DNA of 26,194 nucleotides from positions 1 to 26,194 of IMG/VR virus record IMGVR_UViG_3300047552_002018. One strand, written 5' to 3'. The position numbers were made by a program, and so were the translations under genes. This DNA is from a virus. Numbering within the stretch: the stretch's first letter is position 1; every line of letters begins with the position of its first letter. The notes beneath the pieces were generated by a model. It was given only the letters and a program-made list of their open reading frames with translations, was not told where the DNA came from and did not search any database. Of this stretch, positions 1,088 through 24,779 are shown piece after piece.

Positions 1088-2131
1088 ATGCCCATTCTAA
1101 TCAATTCAAACACTCTAACATTTGACGACATCCTCCTTGTACCACAATTTTCCGATCTGGCATCTAGAAAAGATGTAGATATTAGCACCAACTTATTCGG
1201 TGTCTCTCTTCCAGTTCCCATTTGTTCTGCAAATATGGATACTGTAACTGAGACAGCTATGGCCGAAGAAATGTTTCGTCTAGGCGGAATTGGATTCCTA
1301 CATAGGTATGCTCCGTATGAGACAATTTTTAATTGGCTCAAAGAGATCCATGATGATAAGAAGTCTATAGCAATTCCGTCTATTGGAGTAAAAGATAGTG
1401 ACTTAGAATGGGCTCTTAAATATGCCGATTACGGAGTCTTAGGAGTTAATATCGATATAGCTCACGGTGACTCCAAGCACATGCTCAACATGATTGAAAA
1501 GTTGGCCAAAGAAGACATAAATGTCATTGCTGGTAATGTTGCTACTCGTGAAGGTGCGAGACGTCTGGCCAATGCGGGGGCGAAGGTTATTAAAGTTGGT
1601 ATTGGGCCTGGTTCGCTTTGTACCACTCGCATCATCACGGGGCATGGTGTACCACAATTGACTGCGATTATGGAGTGTGCTAGCATTAAAAAGGCTTATG
1701 GAGTTACCATAATTGCCGATGGTGGTATTCGCAACTCAGGTGATATCGTTAAAGCATTAGCTTTTGGTGCCGATCTCGTAATGGTTGGATCACTTCTAGC
1801 AGGAACGGCGGAAAGTCCAGGTAAACTAGTTGAACTGACCAATGAAAAAGGTCTTCGCTATCACGCAAAAGAGTATAGAGGTATGGCTAGTCGAGCGGCG
1901 CGAGATTCAGTATCCAAAACTGATTCTTCTTATACGCCTGAAGGCGAATCCACTTTCGTTAAATATAAGGGACCTGTTCAGGCCATCGTGCGGCAACTAG
2001 AAGGCGGTATACGCTCAGGTTTCAGTTACTCTGGTGCCCACAATCTTCAAGAATTACAAGAAAATGCCGAATACGTTGTTATCTCTGGCAACGGTATGGC
2101 TGAGAGTAAGCCACACCTAATTACTCGTTAA
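1088..2131 (+). CDS. IMP dehydrogenase/GMP reductase family enzyme without CBS domains
   Basis: A TIM-barrel enzyme of the GuaB/GuaC family, acting in guanine nucleotide metabolism (IMP to XMP with NAD+, or GMP to IMP with NADPH). The N-terminal [10 protein letters not shown], the catalytic-cysteine loop [11 protein letters not shown] (Cys about 178) and the phosphate-binding ADGGIR segment are all present. The tandem CBS domains that bacterial IMP dehydrogenases carry between barrel strands are absent, which gives a 347-residue protein of GMP-reductase length. The C-terminal part ([16 protein letters not shown], then [17 protein letters not shown]) looks more like IMP dehydrogenase than GMP reductase, so I lean to a CBS-less IMP dehydrogenase. 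The reaction is not proven by sequence alone. It is the only plus-strand gene here. Its stop lies 2 bases from the stop of the portal gene on the other strand, and it lacks a ribosome-binding site. Confidence 0.85.
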
Positions 2132-15200: not shown

Positions 15201-15802
15201 AATTCGATTAGAAGATTGTCGCCAAACAGTTCCTTGTACATGAGGAAACGTTCTTCGGCAAGCTTTTCATCTTTGTCATGCATGATCGCTTGACCAATAC
15301 AACTAACAATACATCCGGTCCCAAACATCAAACCTTCTCTATATTGCTTAATTTGCTCAAATGTTACTCTAGCCTTTATCGAACCAAAATAAGTAACAGT
15401 ATCATTATAAGCTAATGAAGCTAGCTTCATCAGATTGTGATAGCCCTCATCACTACAAGCCCAAGCAGTAATGTGATAATGTCCTTTGTCTTCAGCGTTA
15501 AGTTTAACATAGAGTTCAACACCAGGAATTAAACGGGTGCCGTCTAGAGGATATTCGGGCCTGGGAGGTTCACTAGGATTCTCCTTATTCCAGTCCTTAT
15601 TCTCTTTATTAATATTTTTAATAAGCTCGGGAGTTCGTAAGGCATCATACATGCTAATCGCAGTGCCATGGTCAGTCACTGCTAAACCCGGTGTGCCTGT
15701 TTCTAGGCACCAGCGGACCCATTCTTGGGGAGAAGGAACAGCATCTAGTAATGAATACTTCGAATGACAATGCAACTGTACAGTTTCTTTAAACTTAGAC
15801 AT
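12281..15802 (-). CDS. dnaE: DNA polymerase III alpha subunit (DnaE-type replicase)
   Basis: A complete C-family replicative polymerase of 1173 residues, close to the 1160 of E. coli DnaE. The N-terminal PHP domain has HCHSKYSLLD (11-20), TDHG (43-46), GVELYV (94-99) and TDAH (258-261), so its metal site looks intact and could proofread. The palm has ARGSAGGS (424-431), FPDIDADIG with the catalytic Asp469/Asp471, and the third Asp at about 640 in VKADILGL. The helix-hairpin-helix (IKGIGPKVVQEL) and a C-terminal OB-like domain follow. No separate epsilon exonuclease or clamp is seen in this window. The ATG at 15802 overlaps the end of the preceding nuclease-like gene by 8 bases, with AGGA upstream. 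Confidence 0.95.
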   Translation of the reverse strand: MSKFKETVQLHCHSKYSLLDAVPSPQEWVRWCLETGTPGLAVTDHGTAISMYDALRTPELIKNINKENKDWNKENPSEPPRPEYPLDGTRLIPGVELYVKLNAEDKGHYHITAWACSDEGYHNLMKLASLAYNDTVTYFGSIKARVTFEQIKQYREGLMFGTGCIVSCIGQAIMHDKDEKLAEERFLMYKELFGDNLLIEFHVGDITHDFNKKTGGFDAFPVENRPDECTCDHNKQRGYNLFLKKMVDKYGGRCVPVTDAHFILPEDKIIQDCLLKNGNSNGWYFYESYHQLRSEEMFQKLQVHLGPEWMTEERFSEWIENTHIPLERSKSINLKFEYHLPKIQIPEHIQAKAPDDYNAQTYYYMMERIKAHGRWNPDPKYVQRFKTELDVIMKNEKLNFIPYFLVYEDIGTYARSQGILQGLARGSAGGSLISFYLKIIHLDPIKANLPFERFLSHARIRAGSFPDIDADIGDRARGLIMKYLQDKYQLGFAQIATFQKMKTKNAIKDAMYALYGKKGNDPEVMAICETIPDSPQGVDEHDFLYGYTDQEGNYNHGVVELNKTLAKFFQINPDIQTMVNKLIGTVRGWGRHASAFVISTLDLSADRVPTMMLDDDHIGKIQVTQYDAVMVEKIGLVKADILGLSTLTAVSDCVELMKAKGIDYLQEENGVPLVYRLPEDKDVYTDFYNKDTDSSFQFNTELIKGMVQEFCPLNRQALADFTALARPGALDAILGDSTAAQYYMDVRNGNKELTFLHEDLVPILSETNGVFIYQESVMRFLVEIAGYSWEESDIIRSAIAKKKQEVIMNCFDRIRASCRNRGWDDESIETVCQQILAFSRYSFNRSHSYAYGELGYITMYLKHHHPLEWWASMLNLDLKEDKLRKYVAKLGDIVRPPSLRHPSSRFEVRQDENGNGCIVAPVSVIKGIGPKVVQELCAKGPFSSLEDFVERIDHAKCNTGGISALIKGRAADDMMDMSVLEYPSRRRKFIDDFKRLRKKPLKLQEDVFQFDPLSIFLQEKETNKVFNKTLLSDPDIMAIVKKYHTDEASLELNSLVTTNREAVPFLMGSVPILANIKIAEGFCGKTDKDVGLILLYESSAFTSGTSKKNNRPWSKVGVQLSDGYATIECVDWKAKRAFGWPKNSIVYVKGQLKPGWKTPVCLDIHEIQRLSND

Positions 15803-16652
15803 GTAGGATTCCTATTTCAATAAGTTTATTTTTTATAAACTCTTTTAAATTCTTTTTCTGTGTGTAGGGAATTCTTATTAAAGTAATTCCAAAAGTCGCA
15901 CATAGCTCATCTTTAATTTGATCTCTTACTTGAGTAGCCATCAAACTAGATGTTGTATTAGTTCCCCAATAGGGAACAAAGTGAAATTCACCGTCATATT
16001 CAAAGGCGAGTTGCAATTCTTCACAGTATCCATCTAACTGCATAATACCGTTACTGTTTGAGTTTGGATTTTTTAACCATTGCGGCCTAACAGATGGAAA
16101 CTTCTTGTTGGTTAAAATCTCAAAAATTTCTCTAACTTTATTTTCTGTACCTGACTTACAACCCGGACAAGAGTAACGTTTGAAATCAGAAAACGTAATA
16201 TTCCATGCATAACTACACTTATTGCATTTAAATAATATTTTCTTGTTACTTGCTTGATAAGAAGCCTCATCAAAAATAAAATTTCTATTTTCCACTTCAT
16301 TTTTTACTTCTTCTAGAGAAGTTCTTCTAGAAATACCATAACATTGGCGGCATCCACCTTTAGTTTTCTTAAGGTTTGTAATAGAAGAAACCCACTCATG
16401 ACCGTTATCACATTGAACGACCATTTGCGGCTGTTTGGTATTCTTTTCTATTCTTAGAAAAATAAGCCCCAAATCTAAAACTGTCTGTTTGTAAGATTCA
16501 AAAGTATTTTTATGCCGAATCGTATCAACTGTTTTATTAGTTTTTCTTAAATACCAAAGTCTATTTACACAAACTTTAGAGCAACAGACCTTATTTTGAT
16601 TCGAAGTCTTATCCTCAAATTCAGTGCCACATTGAAGACAATTCTTAGACAT
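15794..16652. mobile_element. Inserted homing-endonuclease gene bounded by a 9-base direct repeat
   Basis: ATGTCTAAG (minus strand) occurs at 16652-16644 as the start of the nuclease gene and at 15802-15794 as the start of dnaE. Removing one copy and the DNA between would leave the phosphatase gene ending in the same ATGTCTAA overlap directly on dnaE. This looks like a clean insertion that kept both neighbours readable. Confidence 0.5.
15795..16652 (-). CDS. Zinc-ribbon plus PD-(D/E)XK/Vsr-like nuclease, probable free-standing homing endonuclease
   Basis: The N-terminal 170 residues carry several Cys pairs that look like short zinc ribbons: C5-x2-C8 with C24/C28, C101-x2-C104, C143-x2-C146 and C162-x2-C165. 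The C-terminal domain starts at ENKVREIFE and has MQLDGY (Asp207), AFEYDGEFHF (Glu218, Asp220, His224), then VRDQIKDELC and LIRIPY. This is the layout of Vsr-like/EDxHD homing endonucleases such as the I-Bth0305I group, and probably cuts DNA. It overlaps both neighbours by the same 8 bases (ATGTCTAA), so it appears inserted exactly at the phosphatase-dnaE junction. It looks more AT-rich than its neighbours, which fits a mobile origin. Confidence 0.75.
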   Translation of the reverse strand: MSKNCLQCGTEFEDKTSNQNKVCCSKVCVNRLWYLRKTNKTVDTIRHKNTFESYKQTVLDLGLIFLRIEKNTKQPQMVVQCDNGHEWVSSITNLKKTKGGCRQCYGISRRTSLEEVKNEVENRNFIFDEASYQASNKKILFKCNKCSYAWNITFSDFKRYSCPGCKSGTENKVREIFEILTNKKFPSVRPQWLKNPNSNSNGIMQLDGYCEELQLAFEYDGEFHFVPYWGTNTTSSLMATQVRDQIKDELCATFGITLIRIPYTQKKNLKEFIKNKLIEIGILHV

Positions 16653-18009: not shown

Positions 18010-18016
18010 ATTATAC
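18010..18016 (-). promoter_or_regulatory. GTATAAT promoter candidate
   Basis: Reads CGGTATAATTTATTTTG on the minus strand; its TAA is also the stop codon of the HNH gene. It lies 33 bases before the ATG at 17976, leaving room for a leader with an AAGGA site. It shares GTATAATWT with the other gap motifs and lacks a clear -35. Confidence 0.45.
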
Positions 18017-18556
18017 CGATGATTGATTTTTGACAAGCTGTTCTTTCAGCTTTATAGCTCTATCTGCGATATCTTTTAGTCCAGAAGTTTTCTTCTTTCC
18101 AATATACTTCTTAAGAAGTTTGAGAGCGTCTTTGTCAGAAAGATCCTTTGACTTCACTCGTCCCTCAAGATCATCCAGCTCTTTTCCATATTGAAGTAAG
18201 AGACGAGAAATACGCTCTGATTGAGTCTTTACGTTATGACAAGTATCGCAGATGACCTGAAGATTCTCAGCAGCGCAGAATAATCGATCTTTAAAAGTCT
18301 GTAAGTCGATAAATCCATCAGTTACAGAGACAACCGGCTCAATATGATCAACTGTCACCATTGTGCTGCCTACATAATTCTTACAGACATTACATCGATA
18401 TTGAACAGCATCTTTCTTAGAACGATTACCATCCTTATTATAGCGAGCAACTTCTCTTCTCACCTTAAATAAGACCTCACGAATCACAGGGGATCTAGAG
18501 AAAACTCTTCGTAATGCGCCACGAATAGCTGCATCTTCATTCCATTTCTTAGCCAT
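18011..18556 (-). CDS. HNH endonuclease
   Basis: An HNH nuclease of 181 residues. YRCNVCKNY gives the first Cys pair, VDHIEPV holds the catalytic Asp-His, and NLQVICDTCHNVKT gives the Asn, the second Cys pair and the final His. The N-terminal part is basic (IREVLFKVRREVARYN) and the C-terminal third is Lys-rich and helical, both able to bind DNA. It could be a homing endonuclease or a packaging/recombination helper; it is far from the terminase genes, so homing is more likely. The ATG at 18556 lies 9 bases after the preceding gene, in a tight unit. Confidence 0.85.
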   Translation of the reverse strand: MAKKWNEDAAIRGALRRVFSRSPVIREVLFKVRREVARYNKDGNRSKKDAVQYRCNVCKNYVGSTMVTVDHIEPVVSVTDGFIDLQTFKDRLFCAAENLQVICDTCHNVKTQSERISRLLLQYGKELDDLEGRVKSKDLSDKDALKLLKKYIGKKKTSGLKDIADRAIKLKEQLVKNQSSV

Positions 18557-18795: not shown

Positions 18796-20100
18796 TTAAT
18801 CAATTAACCAAGCTGGTTCTTTGTTTTCGTGTCGATACATTGGGCCGGAGGTCGTACGGTTATTCTCTAACAAATCATACACACTTCTATAAGATTTTTG
18901 ACCATTATTTACTGCATTCTTCATACCTTGCAATCTACGCAGAAATCCCTGTGTCACAGAGGAATTGGGGCCATGACCCTGAGCAGCCAATATCTCTTTA
19001 GCTTTATCGGAATCTAAGGAATTTAGCCATTTAACCGCCTCTGGATGTAAAGAAGTGCCATCTTTGCCCATCCCTTTAATCTTAGAATCTTCGGTATGCT
19101 TAAGATAGGCAGGATAGTCGTTCGTATCAAAGTTTTTGTAGTCAAAAGACGTACCATTATCGATTAGATGTAGCTTATCATCGCCTTCTACCATGTAATT
19201 ACCACCATGGCGATCATGATGTCCCATGATATTGTCCATTAAGGCCAACTTGTGAAGTGTTCCATTATCATGAAGTTTGTTTAAAATTTTTCCATGACTT
19301 TCATCTGCTAACTCTTTCTGGCCCTCAGCTTCAAATGGATTTTCGCCCTCTTGAGTGGGTTTGTCTAATACATCATCTTTAAGATCGACGTGTTTAGCTT
19401 TAGACTTCATCTCTTGAACAGAATAATCTTCACCATCGCGTGAAAATCCGGCAGTTGTTGGAACATGTTCGCCGAGGCCGAAATACCCATGGGCCATGTC
19501 GTGAAACAACACTTCACGCTTAGCTGAATTAAATCCATTATCTAAATGACCACGCTCTTTTTGATTCGCGTGATCGCTAGCTCTCTTTAAGATCACATTC
19601 TGCTTGCTGATCGGATTAGAGGCTAAATGCGCTCCACCGGCGATACTTCCTCTCATGGGTTTTGAATTATTTACATCAAGCCCATGAATCAACTTAGTCT
19701 GATCTGGAGAATGCGTCTTAAATCCCTCCACACTAGAATTGATAGGTGCTATTTTCTGAGCCTGACGAGTGACTATCGCAGGAGTTGAGGGTCTATCGAC
19801 TTTTGTCCCAATCGATTTTGAGAATGACCATTGCCCATTTTCCTCAATTTTTAAAACTTCAACATTAACCTTGCCAGGATTTGGGTTTTTTAGTTGTTGA
19901 GCTACCTTAATTGGATCTTTTTTGGATGGCGGCGGTAAACCACTTGGAATCTTTCCTATAGTCGGTTGCTTAATAGATGGCTTAGGTGCATTTAATGAAG
20001 GCGACTTAAGAGCAGGTACAAAAAAATCCTTCTTTGCATTGGTCTTCAATGAAAGCAAGGACTTGAGCAATTCTTCGACTTTTTGTGCCAAATCATCCAT
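18796..20100 (-). CDS. PI3/4-kinase-fold (atypical protein or lipid kinase-like) protein
   Basis: The C-terminal two thirds fit the PI3K/PI4K/FAM20/HipA-type kinase fold. QNVILKR has a likely ATP-binding Lys172. SAKREVLFHDMAHGYFG carries Glu196 in the alphaC position, and EHVPTTAGFS resembles the hinge-side strand. The catalytic loop is MDNIMGHHDRHGGNYMV (Asp296, Asn301), and HLIDNGTSF (Asp314) is the metal-binding DFG equivalent. The first 125 residues are Pro/Lys/Ser-rich and probably disordered. The substrate could be a protein, lipid or nucleotide and cannot be told. The ATG at 20100 has no ribosome-binding site; a TGATAAAAT box ends 8 bases before it. It lies between gp46 and small genes of unknown function. 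Confidence 0.7.
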   Translation of the reverse strand: MDDLAQKVEELLKSLLSLKTNAKKDFFVPALKSPSLNAPKPSIKQPTIGKIPSGLPPPSKKDPIKVAQQLKNPNPGKVNVEVLKIEENGQWSFSKSIGTKVDRPSTPAIVTRQAQKIAPINSSVEGFKTHSPDQTKLIHGLDVNNSKPMRGSIAGGAHLASNPISKQNVILKRASDHANQKERGHLDNGFNSAKREVLFHDMAHGYFGLGEHVPTTAGFSRDGEDYSVQEMKSKAKHVDLKDDVLDKPTQEGENPFEAEGQKELADESHGKILNKLHDNGTLHKLALMDNIMGHHDRHGGNYMVEGDDKLHLIDNGTSFDYKNFDTNDYPAYLKHTEDSKIKGMGKDGTSLHPEAVKWLNSLDSDKAKEILAAQGHGPNSSVTQGFLRRLQGMKNAVNNGQKSYRSVYDLLENNRTTSGPMYRHENKEPAWLID

Positions 20101-20108
20101 AATGCTAC

Positions 20109-20117
20109 ATTTTATCA
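20109..20117 (-). promoter_or_regulatory. Extended -10 candidate before the kinase-like gene
   Basis: TGATAAAAT (TGn plus TAAAAT) overlaps the TGA stop of the gp46-like gene and ends 8 bases before the ATG at 20100. RNA would start within about two bases of that ATG, so the message would be nearly leaderless, in line with the missing ribosome-binding site. It is a weaker match than the GTATAAT group. Confidence 0.3.
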
Positions 20118-21866
20118 GGTTACAGTATTGAGCTGTGAAATCCCATTGCGTTTTTCAATTCTTAGAATTTTATCGAATGAAGCCCGCATCTCACTGGCAT
20201 GATCAATGACTATCACCTGTTTATCTATAGATAAGCCCCTAATCAATTCTAGAGCAAATTCTTTGCCTGCGGCATCTAGACCATCAAATGCCTCATCAAA
20301 GATAATCGGGGACATATGTAGGCCAAACTGTTGTTCAAGAATACCTAGAAGGGCTATGTCTGCACAAATCGAAAGGGCCTTTAATTCACCTCCAGACAGG
20401 CTACCTAGAGAGATCTCCTTCCCGTCCATGATAATGGACTCAGAAAATTTAGCAGTTACTTCACCTTTCACATTCTCTTTATATGACTGTAGTTCATAAG
20501 TAAGATTTGGCCATAACATATTTACATACTTAGAGATCTGTTCATTAAAAAGAGCAACTGCCGAATCCAATATATAGGCTTGTGCACCAGTCGCAGAATA
20601 AATAGCTGCAACCGTCTTCTGTAATTCAATTTCTTCTGCAATCTGCAATAGCCCGGAATTATGAGTGTCTCGTTGAGCCCGTAATGCATTGATCTTCTCC
20701 ACTAATTGGGCATTATTATTCAACTTTTTATTCAAATCATCGATCAGGGAATCAATGGATCGAATACTCGCAGATAATTCAACTTGGGCAATCGAGGCCT
20801 GTTCGTATTCCGCAGATTCCTTCTTCTTTCGCTCCTTAACCTTAGTATGAAGGTCAAATACTTGTTGCTCAGCTAAAAGAGAAGTATCGATAGCATCAAT
20901 CTGCTCCTTGAGTTCGAGGCGCTCCTGCTTGAGACGTTCCATTTCTGTATTATGCGCAAGTTCGGCGTGAGAATTGTCTAATGCTGAACCGCATGTAGGA
21001 CATGACTCGTTAGCAGCAAAGGGCTTAATCTTTTTTTCAAGTTGATTCCATTGAGCAAACAGCATTTCACGCTTAGTTCGCTGTCTTGTAAATTCAGACT
21101 TTTTTAAGAGAATATCTTCTTCAAGTTTTTGGTATTTAGCTAGATCAGGTCGCTGAACAGCTTGTACCTTCTCTAAAGCTTGTACGAAAGATGATCTAGC
21201 ATCTTGCTTTTGAGCAATCACAAAATTGGTTTCAGATTCATCTATAACAGCTTCGCCGTAAGCATCAATTTTTACTTGCAATTCTGATATCTGACGTTGA
21301 AATGTTTGCAACTTAACTTGCATTGAAGCAATAATCTCATCACACTTCTTTTTGCACAAATTAAATTCATCTAAATTAAGTAACTGCAATAAGAACTGTT
21401 TTTTATCAGAATCGTTTAAAAGTAAGAATCGAGATGAAGTCGCACTATTAGTCTGTGAACAATACATTGCAACTACAAACTGGTTATAGGATACGCGAAG
21501 TTTGGCTTCCCATTCCTCCTGGGTAAGCGAGAGATTCTCAACCGTTCCATTAACCTCACGCGTAAATACAACTCCCTTAGGTCTTGATCGGTACACCCCA
21601 AAAATCTCGCCTCCGACATCAAGTCGGACAAAAACACTCCCCTTTTTTGCTCCGCGTCTAAGCAATTCTGAAGCAGTAACCTTGCGAGGAAGCTTATCAT
21701 AAAGTCCGAATGAGATTGCATTAAGAACTGCCGTCTTCCCGGCGCCATTGGCTCGGTCCACGTCATAGTTCCACCCCTCTAACAAAAGCATGCCTGTACT
21801 TTCAAAGTCTAGGTGTGCCTTTTCGATACTAAGAAAATTCTCAATGTCAATAGATATAAGTTGCAT
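20115..21866 (-). CDS. SbcC/Rad50/gp46-like recombination ATPase
   Basis: An SMC-like ATPase that partners the gp47-like nuclease in DNA end processing. Walker A is NGAGKT (40-45), a long coiled coil surrounds the zinc hook CPTCG near the middle, the signature is LSGGELK, Walker B is PIIFDEAFDGLD and the H-loop is VIDHA. It is short for SbcC (583 residues) but typical of phage gp46. I place the start at the ATG 21866 (MQLISIDIENF, the usual N-terminus); the TTG six bases earlier would add two residues. There is no ribosome-binding site; GTATAAT lies directly upstream. The stop is 14 bases from the kinase-like gene's start. Confidence 0.93.
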   Translation of the reverse strand: MQLISIDIENFLSIEKAHLDFESTGMLLLEGWNYDVDRANGAGKTAVLNAISFGLYDKLPRKVTASELLRRGAKKGSVFVRLDVGGEIFGVYRSRPKGVVFTREVNGTVENLSLTQEEWEAKLRVSYNQFVVAMYCSQTNSATSSRFLLLNDSDKKQFLLQLLNLDEFNLCKKKCDEIIASMQVKLQTFQRQISELQVKIDAYGEAVIDESETNFVIAQKQDARSSFVQALEKVQAVQRPDLAKYQKLEEDILLKKSEFTRQRTKREMLFAQWNQLEKKIKPFAANESCPTCGSALDNSHAELAHNTEMERLKQERLELKEQIDAIDTSLLAEQQVFDLHTKVKERKKKESAEYEQASIAQVELSASIRSIDSLIDDLNKKLNNNAQLVEKINALRAQRDTHNSGLLQIAEEIELQKTVAAIYSATGAQAYILDSAVALFNEQISKYVNMLWPNLTYELQSYKENVKGEVTAKFSESIIMDGKEISLGSLSGGELKALSICADIALLGILEQQFGLHMSPIIFDEAFDGLDAAGKEFALELIRGLSIDKQVIVIDHASEMRASFDKILRIEKRNGISQLNTVT

Positions 21867-21873
21867 TGACAAT

Positions 21874-23060: not shown

Positions 23061-24779
23061 TTACTCCTGTCCTACGTGGCCGGTTGAGTCGGACATCATA
23101 TCTTTGAAGGCACTCTTAGAAAGAGCTAATTGTGCCTCTAATCCAGCATCCCGCGGGGAAACAATCAACCCACCCAATGTTGACAAGATAGACGCAACAG
23201 AAAGGGCATTTCCAATGGTGACTCGACAGACCTTTGCGGGCTCAAGGATGCCGGCTTCTTCGGGCTCTACGATCTTATGAGTATTAGCATCAAAGATATG
23301 AGTAGGAGGAACATCGGAATTGGTGATGAATTGGTTCATCGCGTTCCAGATATCGGCAAAATCTTCGCCACAGTTAGAGAGAAGCAACTTAAAGGGTTCC
23401 ATTAGACTCTGTTCCATGATGACCCATGAAGGAAGACGGTTCGTGTCGCGACGAATGATATCGGCAAGGATGAGATGTATCCCGCACCCTCCTGGGATGA
23501 TCCCTTCAGCAATAGCAGAACGAACGGCCTCAACGGCATCCTCTACACGGGCCTTCTTTTCGCGTGCCTCTAATTCAGATCCTCCGCCTACCCAGATCGT
23601 TGAGATACCACCAGTGAGTTTAGAGATGGCTGCCTTTACGAACATCTTTTCACGGTCATTCGGTGCGATAGCGGCAATAGACTTCAGTTCGGCAATTCGA
23701 GCCTCTAAGATATCTGGATCTGGTTCAGCTGTAAGGAAGGCCTCGTAGAAATTCACCTTAGCAGTCTTAAAGGAACCAAAAGAAAGCCCCTCTTCGATAG
23801 CAAGATCAAGGTTAGCCGGGTCATATACAGTAGCTGAAGTATAGGCCGCAATATCATGTAAGAACATGACTCGTGAGTTAGCGACTCCACCCATTGGAGT
23901 CTTAACTGGAACTACTGTGTATCCGCCTTTTGTAGTCTTAGCAAACTTGTCTAATACAACATCAGCAAAGTGATGAGCAAATACGATGATTGGCTTTCCA
24001 TAGAGGTTGGTTCCTTCGACAGCCTGTTGAATAGCAGCAGGAACCTTGAGGTCATTCAAGGACCCATCGAAAAGAAATACCAATCCTTCATCCATCTTTG
24101 CTTGTTGGTTTGCTCTATCGTTGATAAATGAGATTCCAATCGTCCCGAGATCCTTGAGTCCTGACGTAACGATACATCCCTCCATCGATTCAACTCGGAT
24201 AGTTGGATCATCAGCTTCTTCCACCAAAACTTGCCCGTCTTCTCCTGCTGCCATAACTGCGTCAACCGCAGCCGTAGCAATAGTGGTATCCCCATTCGCA
24301 CTGATTGTTGCGACATTAATCAATTCCTCCCGTGATTTCACAGACTTAGCATGTTTCTTTAAGAATGGAACAATAACGCTCTCATATAGCTTATTAAGAT
24401 CATTGATCATCCGCTGCGGATTGTATTTAGGATTGGCCTCTAGAAAATTAGAGGCATTCTGAACAAGAGCATTAGCTAACACAATTGCCGTAGTCGTTCC
24501 ATCTCCTGCTTCCTTTGCGGTACGAAGACAGATCTCTTTAGCGGCCTCAACAACAACAGAGGCCTGAGCGTTTGCCATACCTACCGCCTTAGCAACAGTG
24601 ACTCCATCCTTGGTTGCTAAGGGCGCTAGATTATCACGCTCGATGAGCACTGTACGACCGCCAGGTCCAAGGGTCGAACCTACAATAGTCGCCATCTCAT
24701 TTAGAGCAGCTTGAACAACGCGTTTGATCTCGGCCTTGTCAGTTGTGACTTCTTTAGCTTTTTGACGCTCATATAACAT
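23061..24779 (-). CDS. GroEL-type chaperonin
   Basis: A group I chaperonin subunit of 572 residues that should form ATP-driven folding rings, probably for phage proteins. Motifs are LGPGGRTVLI (38-46), KDGVTVAK (57-64), GDGTTTA (92-98) and RVEDAVEAVRSAIAEGIIPG, so the ATPase residues corresponding to Asp52, Asp87 and Asp398 of GroEL appear present. The Gly-Gly-Met tail is missing and replaced by an acidic/Ser end (SDSTGHVGQE). Sequence is well diverged from bacterial GroEL, as in the chaperonins of large phages such as phiEL. No GroES gene is seen in the window. The ATG at 24779 overlaps the preceding TAA (TAATG), with GAGGGAC upstream. Confidence 0.92.
   Translation of the reverse strand: MLYERQKAKEVTTDKAEIKRVVQAALNEMATIVGSTLGPGGRTVLIERDNLAPLATKDGVTVAKAVGMANAQASVVVEAAKEICLRTAKEAGDGTTTAIVLANALVQNASNFLEANPKYNPQRMINDLNKLYESVIVPFLKKHAKSVKSREELINVATISANGDTTIATAAVDAVMAAGEDGQVLVEEADDPTIRVESMEGCIVTSGLKDLGTIGISFINDRANQQAKMDEGLVFLFDGSLNDLKVPAAIQQAVEGTNLYGKPIIVFAHHFADVVLDKFAKTTKGGYTVVPVKTPMGGVANSRVMFLHDIAAYTSATVYDPANLDLAIEEGLSFGSFKTAKVNFYEAFLTAEPDPDILEARIAELKSIAAIAPNDREKMFVKAAISKLTGGISTIWVGGGSELEAREKKARVEDAVEAVRSAIAEGIIPGGCGIHLILADIIRRDTNRLPSWVIMEQSLMEPFKLLLSNCGEDFADIWNAMNQFITNSDVPPTHIFDANTHKIVEPEEAGILEPAKVCRVTIGNALSVASILSTLGGLIVSPRDAGLEAQLALSKSAFKDMMSDSTGHVGQE

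What the first reader, a model, noticed from the sequence alone, without database searches (positions are those of the whole stretch)
18796..20100. Phage-encoded PI3/4-kinase-fold protein
HDRHGGN plus IDNG, with a plausible ATP-binding Lys and alphaC Glu, form a complete kinase active site of the PI3K/FAM20/HipA-like superfamily, behind a disordered Pro/Lys-rich N-terminus. It sits beside the recombination ATPase gene and lacks a ribosome-binding site. Such a kinase could modify host proteins or virion proteins, or counter host defence. Its substrate class seems undescribed.
Basis: partly seen in the sequence, partly recalled or inferred. Interest (0 to 1): 0.65.

Follow-up and report, generated by a model that had tools for sequence, protein, structure and literature searches.

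The report
Phage kinase on a virion-cargo tag
A bacterial virus carries a kinase-like enzyme, shaped like a human lipid kinase, behind a short reusable sequence tag that related viruses put on many different proteins, probably to load them into the virus particle and deliver them into the bacterium.

Summary
A model of residues 130-434 (pLDDT 80.8, pTM 0.84) matches type II PI4-kinases (Z 19.2), then CtkA, FAM20 and HipA/HipT. Lys172, Glu196, Asp296, Asn301 and Asp314 are conserved. PI3/4K-like kinases are not rare in phages: dozens were found. The same ~95-residue leader, ending in LKxxxNGQWSxxK, sits at the same locus in about a dozen related phage loci but with other C-terminal sequences. 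A short NGQWxLxK tag recurs on many unrelated proteins (31 genomic sites against 2 control sites), mostly at the N-terminus, often near capsid, prohead-protease or tail-sheath genes. In Mx1-like phages the same kinase domain is instead the C-terminus of the prohead protease. A transglycosylase-like domain likewise occurs either tagged or inside a prohead protease. The protein is probably a virion-packaged, injected effector kinase, analogous to T4 Alt and internal proteins, using a tag I found no description of. Packaging, injection and substrate are inferred, not shown.

The parts
18796..20100 (-). Whole gene, 434 aa: leader + NGQW tag + PI3/4K-like kinase domain
19807..20100 (-). Conserved leader, residues 1-98: N-terminal helix, Pro/Lys-rich linker, KKDPxKVAQQLKNP; shared with loci that carry other C-terminal sequences
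   Evidence: phmmer of residues 1-100: L139 9e-43, L140 5e-19, L143 4e-15, L147 9e-12
19816..19854 (-). Tag motif LKIEENGQWSFSK, residues 83-95
18841..19713 (-). Kinase domain, about residues 130-420, including the family-specific C-terminal HPEAxxWL...RL region
19585..19587 (-). Lys172, predicted ATP-binding Lys
   Evidence: invariant in the 14-sequence alignment
19513..19515 (-). Glu196, predicted salt-bridge Glu
   Evidence: invariant
19198..19218 (-). HDRHGGN catalytic motif, residues 295-301 (Asp296, Asn301)
19153..19164 (-). IDNG metal-binding motif, residues 313-316 (Asp314)
20109..20117 (-). TGATAAAAT, an extended -10-like element ending 8 nt before the ATG; its TGA is also the stop codon of the SbcC gene. 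It could give a nearly leaderless transcript
   Evidence: similar element before the L002 and L005 kinase genes and before some NGQW-tagged genes (L186/L214, L213); the simple promoter scan is not clearly above shuffles here
20115..21872 (-). SbcC/Rad50-like recombination ATPase, conserved upstream neighbour
   Evidence: 28% to Mx1 'recombination endonuclease'; same neighbour in relatives
18011..18556 (-). HNH-like gene, conserved downstream neighbour (a RuvC-like gene in some relatives)
   Evidence: the HNH/RuvC names are by eye

Best explanation
The gene encodes a PI3/PI4-kinase-fold kinase made as virion cargo. The leader with its NGQW tag targets the protein to the assembling prohead, the kinase is enclosed with the DNA (possibly after cleavage near the tag), and it is injected at infection. 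There it phosphorylates a host target, most likely a protein, to help early takeover or counter defence, in the manner of T4 Alt and the T4 internal proteins. Shown here: the kinase fold and complete active site, the modular leader with variable C-terminus, the recurring tag on unrelated proteins often in structural gene clusters, and the alternative fusion of the same domain to a prohead protease. Inferred: packaging, cleavage, injection, catalytic activity and substrate.
For: Fold: Z 19.2 to PI4KIIbeta over 240 residues, 18.9 PI4KIIalpha, 13.5 CtkA, 13.1 FAM20C, 12.0 HipT, 11.0 HipA, 10.6 VPS34. Catalytic residues invariant. Orthologues L007 and L002, and the Mx1-like L039, pass Pfam's PF00454 cut-off. 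Prohead-protease fusion: Mx1 WNM70322.1 has a head-maturation-protease-like N-terminus and this kinase domain at its C-terminus; L039, L040 and L055 have protease and kinase in one frame. Leader swap: the locus after SbcC in L139, L140, L141, L143, L147, L150 and others keeps the leader but not the kinase. Tag: 31 NGQW sites against 2 for the reversed pattern in 26 records, up to 8 per record. In 19 distinct N-terminal tags, the unsearched positions +2 and +4 after the W are L/I in 18 and K in 17. Tagged genes in nine loci lie near prohead protease, MCP or tail sheath genes. A transglycosylase-like domain occurs NGQW-tagged (L187), inside a prohead protease (L205, E 4e-14), in Mx1's polyvalent protein (3e-15) and fused to a PI3K-like kinase (L081, 1e-17). 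A tagged 504 aa protein matches PHROG 9427 'head maturation protease', E 8e-6.
Against: No virion proteomics exists for this phage; packaging is inferred from fusion and gene context. The window kinase gene itself lies in the replication/recombination cluster, not among head genes. The tag sits at residue 88 behind a leader, not at the N-terminus as in T4's targeting sequences. The window protein alone scores below Pfam's cut-off for PF00454 (21.8 against 27.1). No known structural protein was seen to carry the tag. No catalysis was tested.
Confidence: 0.6

Rival explanations
1. The kinase acts during assembly: it phosphorylates scaffold, capsid or protease proteins inside the prohead and is not an injected effector.
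For: The same domain is a C-terminal part of the prohead protease in Mx1, L039, L040 and L055.
Against: The kinase is dispensable: close relatives keep the leader without any detectable kinase. The tag is shared with transglycosylase-like and GNAT-like domains, which have no obvious assembly role.
Confidence: 0.15
2. The tagged proteins are sorted within the infected cell (for example to a replication or assembly compartment), without packaging; the kinase modifies host proteins there.
For: The window gene lies in the replication cluster beside SbcC; it has its own -10-like element.
Against: Many tagged genes lie in head/tail clusters, and the same cargo domains are fused to prohead proteases.
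Confidence: 0.13
3. A lipid (phosphoinositide) kinase that alters host membranes.
For: Closest fold matches are type II PI4-kinases.
Against: The fold also matches protein kinases CtkA, FAM20C, HipA and HipT; the protein has no cysteine, so no CCPCC membrane anchor of PI4KII; most bacteria lack phosphatidylinositol (general knowledge).
Confidence: 0.07
4. A pseudokinase or structural relic of a prohead-protease tail with no catalysis.
For: Mx1's copy has drifted (VDRNDGN, IDNA).
Against: All catalytic positions are kept in the window family across 37-66% identity.
Confidence: 0.05

Closest known systems
PI3/PI4-kinase superfamily (Pfam PF00454), especially type II PI4-kinases
   Same: Fold over nearly the whole domain (Z 19.2, rmsd 3.4, 240 residues); ATP Lys, catalytic Asp and Asn, and metal Asp conserved.
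   Different: 13-17% identity; no cysteine-rich anchor; a family-specific HPEAxxWL C-terminal region; attached to a phage leader or a prohead protease.
T4 internal proteins (IPI-III) and Alt with their capsid targeting sequence
   Same: Short conserved sequence attached to otherwise unrelated proteins, some of them host-modifying enzymes; T4 proteins with it go into the prohead and are ejected (PMC9026906).
   Different: The sequence is different (NGQWxLxK); in the window it follows a long leader; packaging unproven; kinase instead of ADP-ribosyltransferase.
Polyvalent proteins of phages (Iyer et al. 2017, PMC5512222)
   Same: Virion-context multidomain proteins with ART, GNAT and kinase domains, predicted to be injected; Mx1 carries one with ART-PolyVal, NUDIX and GNAT.
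   Different: In the window lineage the domains are on separate tagged proteins; the kinase family described there belongs to the Ser/Thr/Tyr kinase superfamily, not the PI3/4K-like one.
MuF-linked effectors of actinobacteriophages
   Same: PI3K-like domain inside MuF(VG15)-ART fusion proteins next to portal genes in mycobacterial prophages.
   Different: Carrier domain is MuF, not a tag or prohead protease; similarity to the window kinase is confined to the catalytic core.
SCO1664 family (TIGR03843)
   Same: Similar catalytic core and RE-containing helix.
   Different: Bacterial proteins; the window protein scores 18.9 bits against a cut-off of 172.4.

Membership tests
PI3/PI4-kinase superfamily (PF00454) | Profile score above the curated cut-off | tested here: inconclusive
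   Window 21.8 against 27.1; its orthologues L007 32.5 and L002 27.9 and fusion L039 31.0 pass
PI3/PI4-kinase superfamily (PF00454) | Two-lobed kinase fold like solved members | tested here: met
   PI4KII Z 18-19, VPS34 Z 10.6
PI3/PI4-kinase superfamily (PF00454) | ATP Lys, catalytic Asp and Asn, metal-binding Asp | tested here: met
   K172, D296, N301, D314 invariant in 14 sequences
Type II PI4-kinase (family proper) | Cys-rich CCPCC palmitoylation motif in the catalytic domain | tested here: not met
   No cysteine in the protein; that the motif defines the family is general knowledge
Type II PI4-kinase (family proper) | Phosphatidylinositol 4-kinase activity | not testable with these tools
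   Needs an enzyme assay
HipA toxin kinases | HipA_C profile match / HipB partner | tested here: inconclusive
   No HipA_C match for the window protein up to E 10, though HipA is among fold matches at Z 11.0; no HipB-like gene was noticed among neighbouring ORFs, not searched specifically
Kinase-PolyVal (polyvalent-protein kinases) | Match to that Pfam family | tested here: not met
   Not among matches up to E 10
T4-type internal proteins | Short shared targeting peptide on diverse cargo | tested here: inconclusive
   A shared NGQW tag is on many unrelated proteins; its sequence differs from T4's and that it targets anything is not shown
T4-type internal proteins | Located in the virion and processed by the prohead protease | not testable with these tools
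   Needs virion mass spectrometry
Prohead-protease-fused kinases of Mx1-like phages | Homologous kinase domain over its full length | tested here: met
   L039 345 bits and L040 307 bits to a family profile that includes them; Mx1 tblastn 4e-11 with the window protein
Prohead-protease-fused kinases of Mx1-like phages | Protease in the same polypeptide | tested here: not met
   Window protein has the leader instead; the contigs of relatives L139, L141 and others have a separate prohead protease

The most novel reading that the evidence does not exclude
A lineage of large phages uses a previously undescribed peptide tag (NGQWxLxK) as a general packaging signal for a swappable set of injected effectors, and the locus between SbcC and the HNH/RuvC gene is a cargo slot where the leader stays and the effector is exchanged; the window family puts a PI4K-like kinase in that slot.
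Probability: 0.5. Interest if true: 0.8.

Novelty: new variant of a known kind. Interest (0 to 1): 0.62.

Why it matters
If the tag is a virion-loading signal, every gene that bears it becomes a predicted injected effector, so hidden takeover and counter-defence proteins of many uncultured phages could be listed by a simple motif search. It would also show one effector domain moving between carriers (prohead protease, polyvalent protein, tagged leader), and the tag could be a short handle for loading chosen proteins into these phage heads.

Tried and rejected
The first structure job, with five full-length orthologues, gave a poor model (pLDDT 49.6); adding more diverse kinase domains solved this. 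A sequence search of the PDB found nothing. Foldseek against the PDB gave no match at E <= 0.001; the second aligner was needed. The plasmid search gave only a catalytic-core match. Mx1's kinase domain found no relatives in IMG/VR by exact peptides. By eye I took several tagged proteins (L186, L210, L218, L233) for ADP-ribosyltransferases; profile comparison and Pfam did not support this, so I drop it. The GNAT reading of L139's C-terminus is below Pfam cut-offs (21.4 against 27 and 18.8 against 20.7). The window's promoter-like element is not clearly above chance in a generic scan. Literature searches found no description of phage PI4K-like kinases as cargo; the tag itself was not searched as a term and the library is partial.

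Full report
Observation. The gene at 18796-20100 (-) encodes 434 aa with HDRHGGN and IDNG as described. It is not a chance ORF: four other phage contigs carry it at 37-66% identity, between an SbcC/Rad50-like gene and an HNH- or RuvC-like gene. The window is a 26 kb fragment of an uncultured phage. Its TerL, portal, SbcD, RecA, SSB, DnaE, SbcC and GroEL all have counterparts in Myxococcus phage Mx1 at 26-32% identity, in a similar layout.

Kinase. Pfam's PI3_PI4_kinase model reaches 21.8 bits for the window protein, below the cut-off of 27.1, but 32.5 and 27.9 for the orthologues L007 and L002. A model of residues 130-434 built on 14 sequences has pLDDT 80.8 and pTM 0.84. Its best structural matches are type II PI4-kinases (Z 18.3-19.2), then CtkA (13.5), FAM20C (13.1), HipT (12.0), HipA (11.0) and VPS34 (10.6). 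The invariant positions are the expected Lys, Glu, Asp, Asn and Asp. The kinase reading therefore stands; activity is not shown, and the fold does not tell protein from lipid substrates.

Relatives. PI3K/PI4K-domain proteins from phages are already in databases. Mycobacterial prophages have a MuF-kinase-ART fusion next to the portal gene. Mx1 has a second such kinase, WNM70334.1, which passes the Pfam cut-off.

Prohead-protease fusion. In Mx1 the domain closest to the window kinase is the C-terminus of a 1,239 aa protein annotated as prohead protease, whose N-terminus matches SPO1-type head maturation proteases. L039 (from a 169.6 kb contig), L040 and L055 have the same protease-kinase protein in one frame; the contig of L048 has both parts and probably the same gene. 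The window lineage differs: the contigs of relatives such as L139 and L141 have a separate prohead protease, and the kinase, where present, stands alone beside SbcC.

Leader and cargo slot. When I collected phages by their SbcC gene, the next gene kept the window protein's first ~95 residues but not the kinase: L139 (phmmer 9e-43 for the leader), L140 (5e-19), L143 (4e-15), L147, L141, L156, L163, L161, L150, L155 (3e-5) and, marginally, L148 (3e-4). A profile search of 24 such records found the kinase only in L006's. The C-termini differ in length and content; L139's is GNAT-like at sub-threshold scores; in L156, L157 and L161-L163 the protein ends just after the tag motif.

Tag. The leader's end, LKxxxNGQWSxxK, recurs elsewhere. 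The NGQW codon pattern has 31 sites in 26 records against 2 for the reversed pattern, with 8 in one 166 kb contig. Many are N-terminal: MEKLxxxxNGQWxLxK at the start of otherwise unrelated proteins. A scan for MEK-x5-NGQW gave 19 distinct tags; L/I two residues and K four residues after the W, neither part of the search, occur in 18 and 17 of them. Tagged genes lie near prohead protease, MCP or tail sheath genes in L185, L210, L211, L212, L213, L218, L230, L233 and L234. A transglycosylase-like domain is tagged in one phage (L187), inside the prohead protease in another (L205, E 4e-14), part of Mx1's NUDIX/ART-PolyVal/GNAT polyvalent protein (3e-15) and fused to a PI3K-like kinase in L081 (1e-17). 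A tagged 504 aa protein matches a PHROG of head maturation proteases. Tag and protease fusion thus look like two ways to bring the same cargo to the prohead.

Interpretation. T4 targets its internal proteins into the prohead with 10-19 residue peptides, and Alt and internal proteins are ejected into the host (PMC9026906). Polyvalent proteins are predicted to be injected likewise (PMC5512222). By analogy, I propose that the window kinase is virion cargo. Packaging, cleavage at or near the tag, injection and substrate are inference. The missing ribosome-binding site may mean a leaderless transcript from the TGATAAAAT element 8 nt upstream; similar elements precede L002, L005 and some tagged genes, but a generic promoter scan was not clearly above chance.

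Verdict. The kinase is a new member of a known superfamily. The modular leader and the recurring tag make it a new variant of the known virion-delivered effector strategy, and I found no description of the tag.

Noticed in passing
L055:6497-11500: The prohead protease-kinase protein carries an intein-like insertion (Intein_splicing E 2e-4, below cut-off) in its middle and a ParB-like match.
   Followed up: partly
L088:2-3766: One open frame with three PI3K-like kinase matches in a row; L031 and L060 have two each.
   Followed up: no
L014:28851-30710 (Mx1): Second PI3/4K-like kinase, annotated only as 'kinase', above the Pfam cut-off with a weak GNAT-like N-terminus, beside the NUDIX/ART/GNAT polyvalent protein.
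   Followed up: partly
window 15795-16652: A 285 aa ORF (by eye a mobile homing-endonuclease-like gene) between the phosphoesterase gene and DnaE; absent in L005, where these two genes adjoin.
   Followed up: no
window 1088-2131: A lone plus-strand gene that by eye looks like an IMP dehydrogenase/GMP reductase, convergent with the portal gene; no family search was run.
   Followed up: no
window 23061-24779: A phage-encoded GroEL-like chaperonin, conserved in the relatives examined and in Mx1.
   Followed up: no
L212:3464-5848: NGQW-tagged 795 aa protein with many leucine-rich-variant repeats (Pfam LRV E 1.5e-37).
   Followed up: no
L150:7803-9617: Leader protein with repeated QWSLxK motifs between segments, as if the tag were repeated along a polyprotein.
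   Followed up: no
L184:541-2900: Three NGQW-tagged paralogues in tandem on the 166 kb contig.
   Followed up: no
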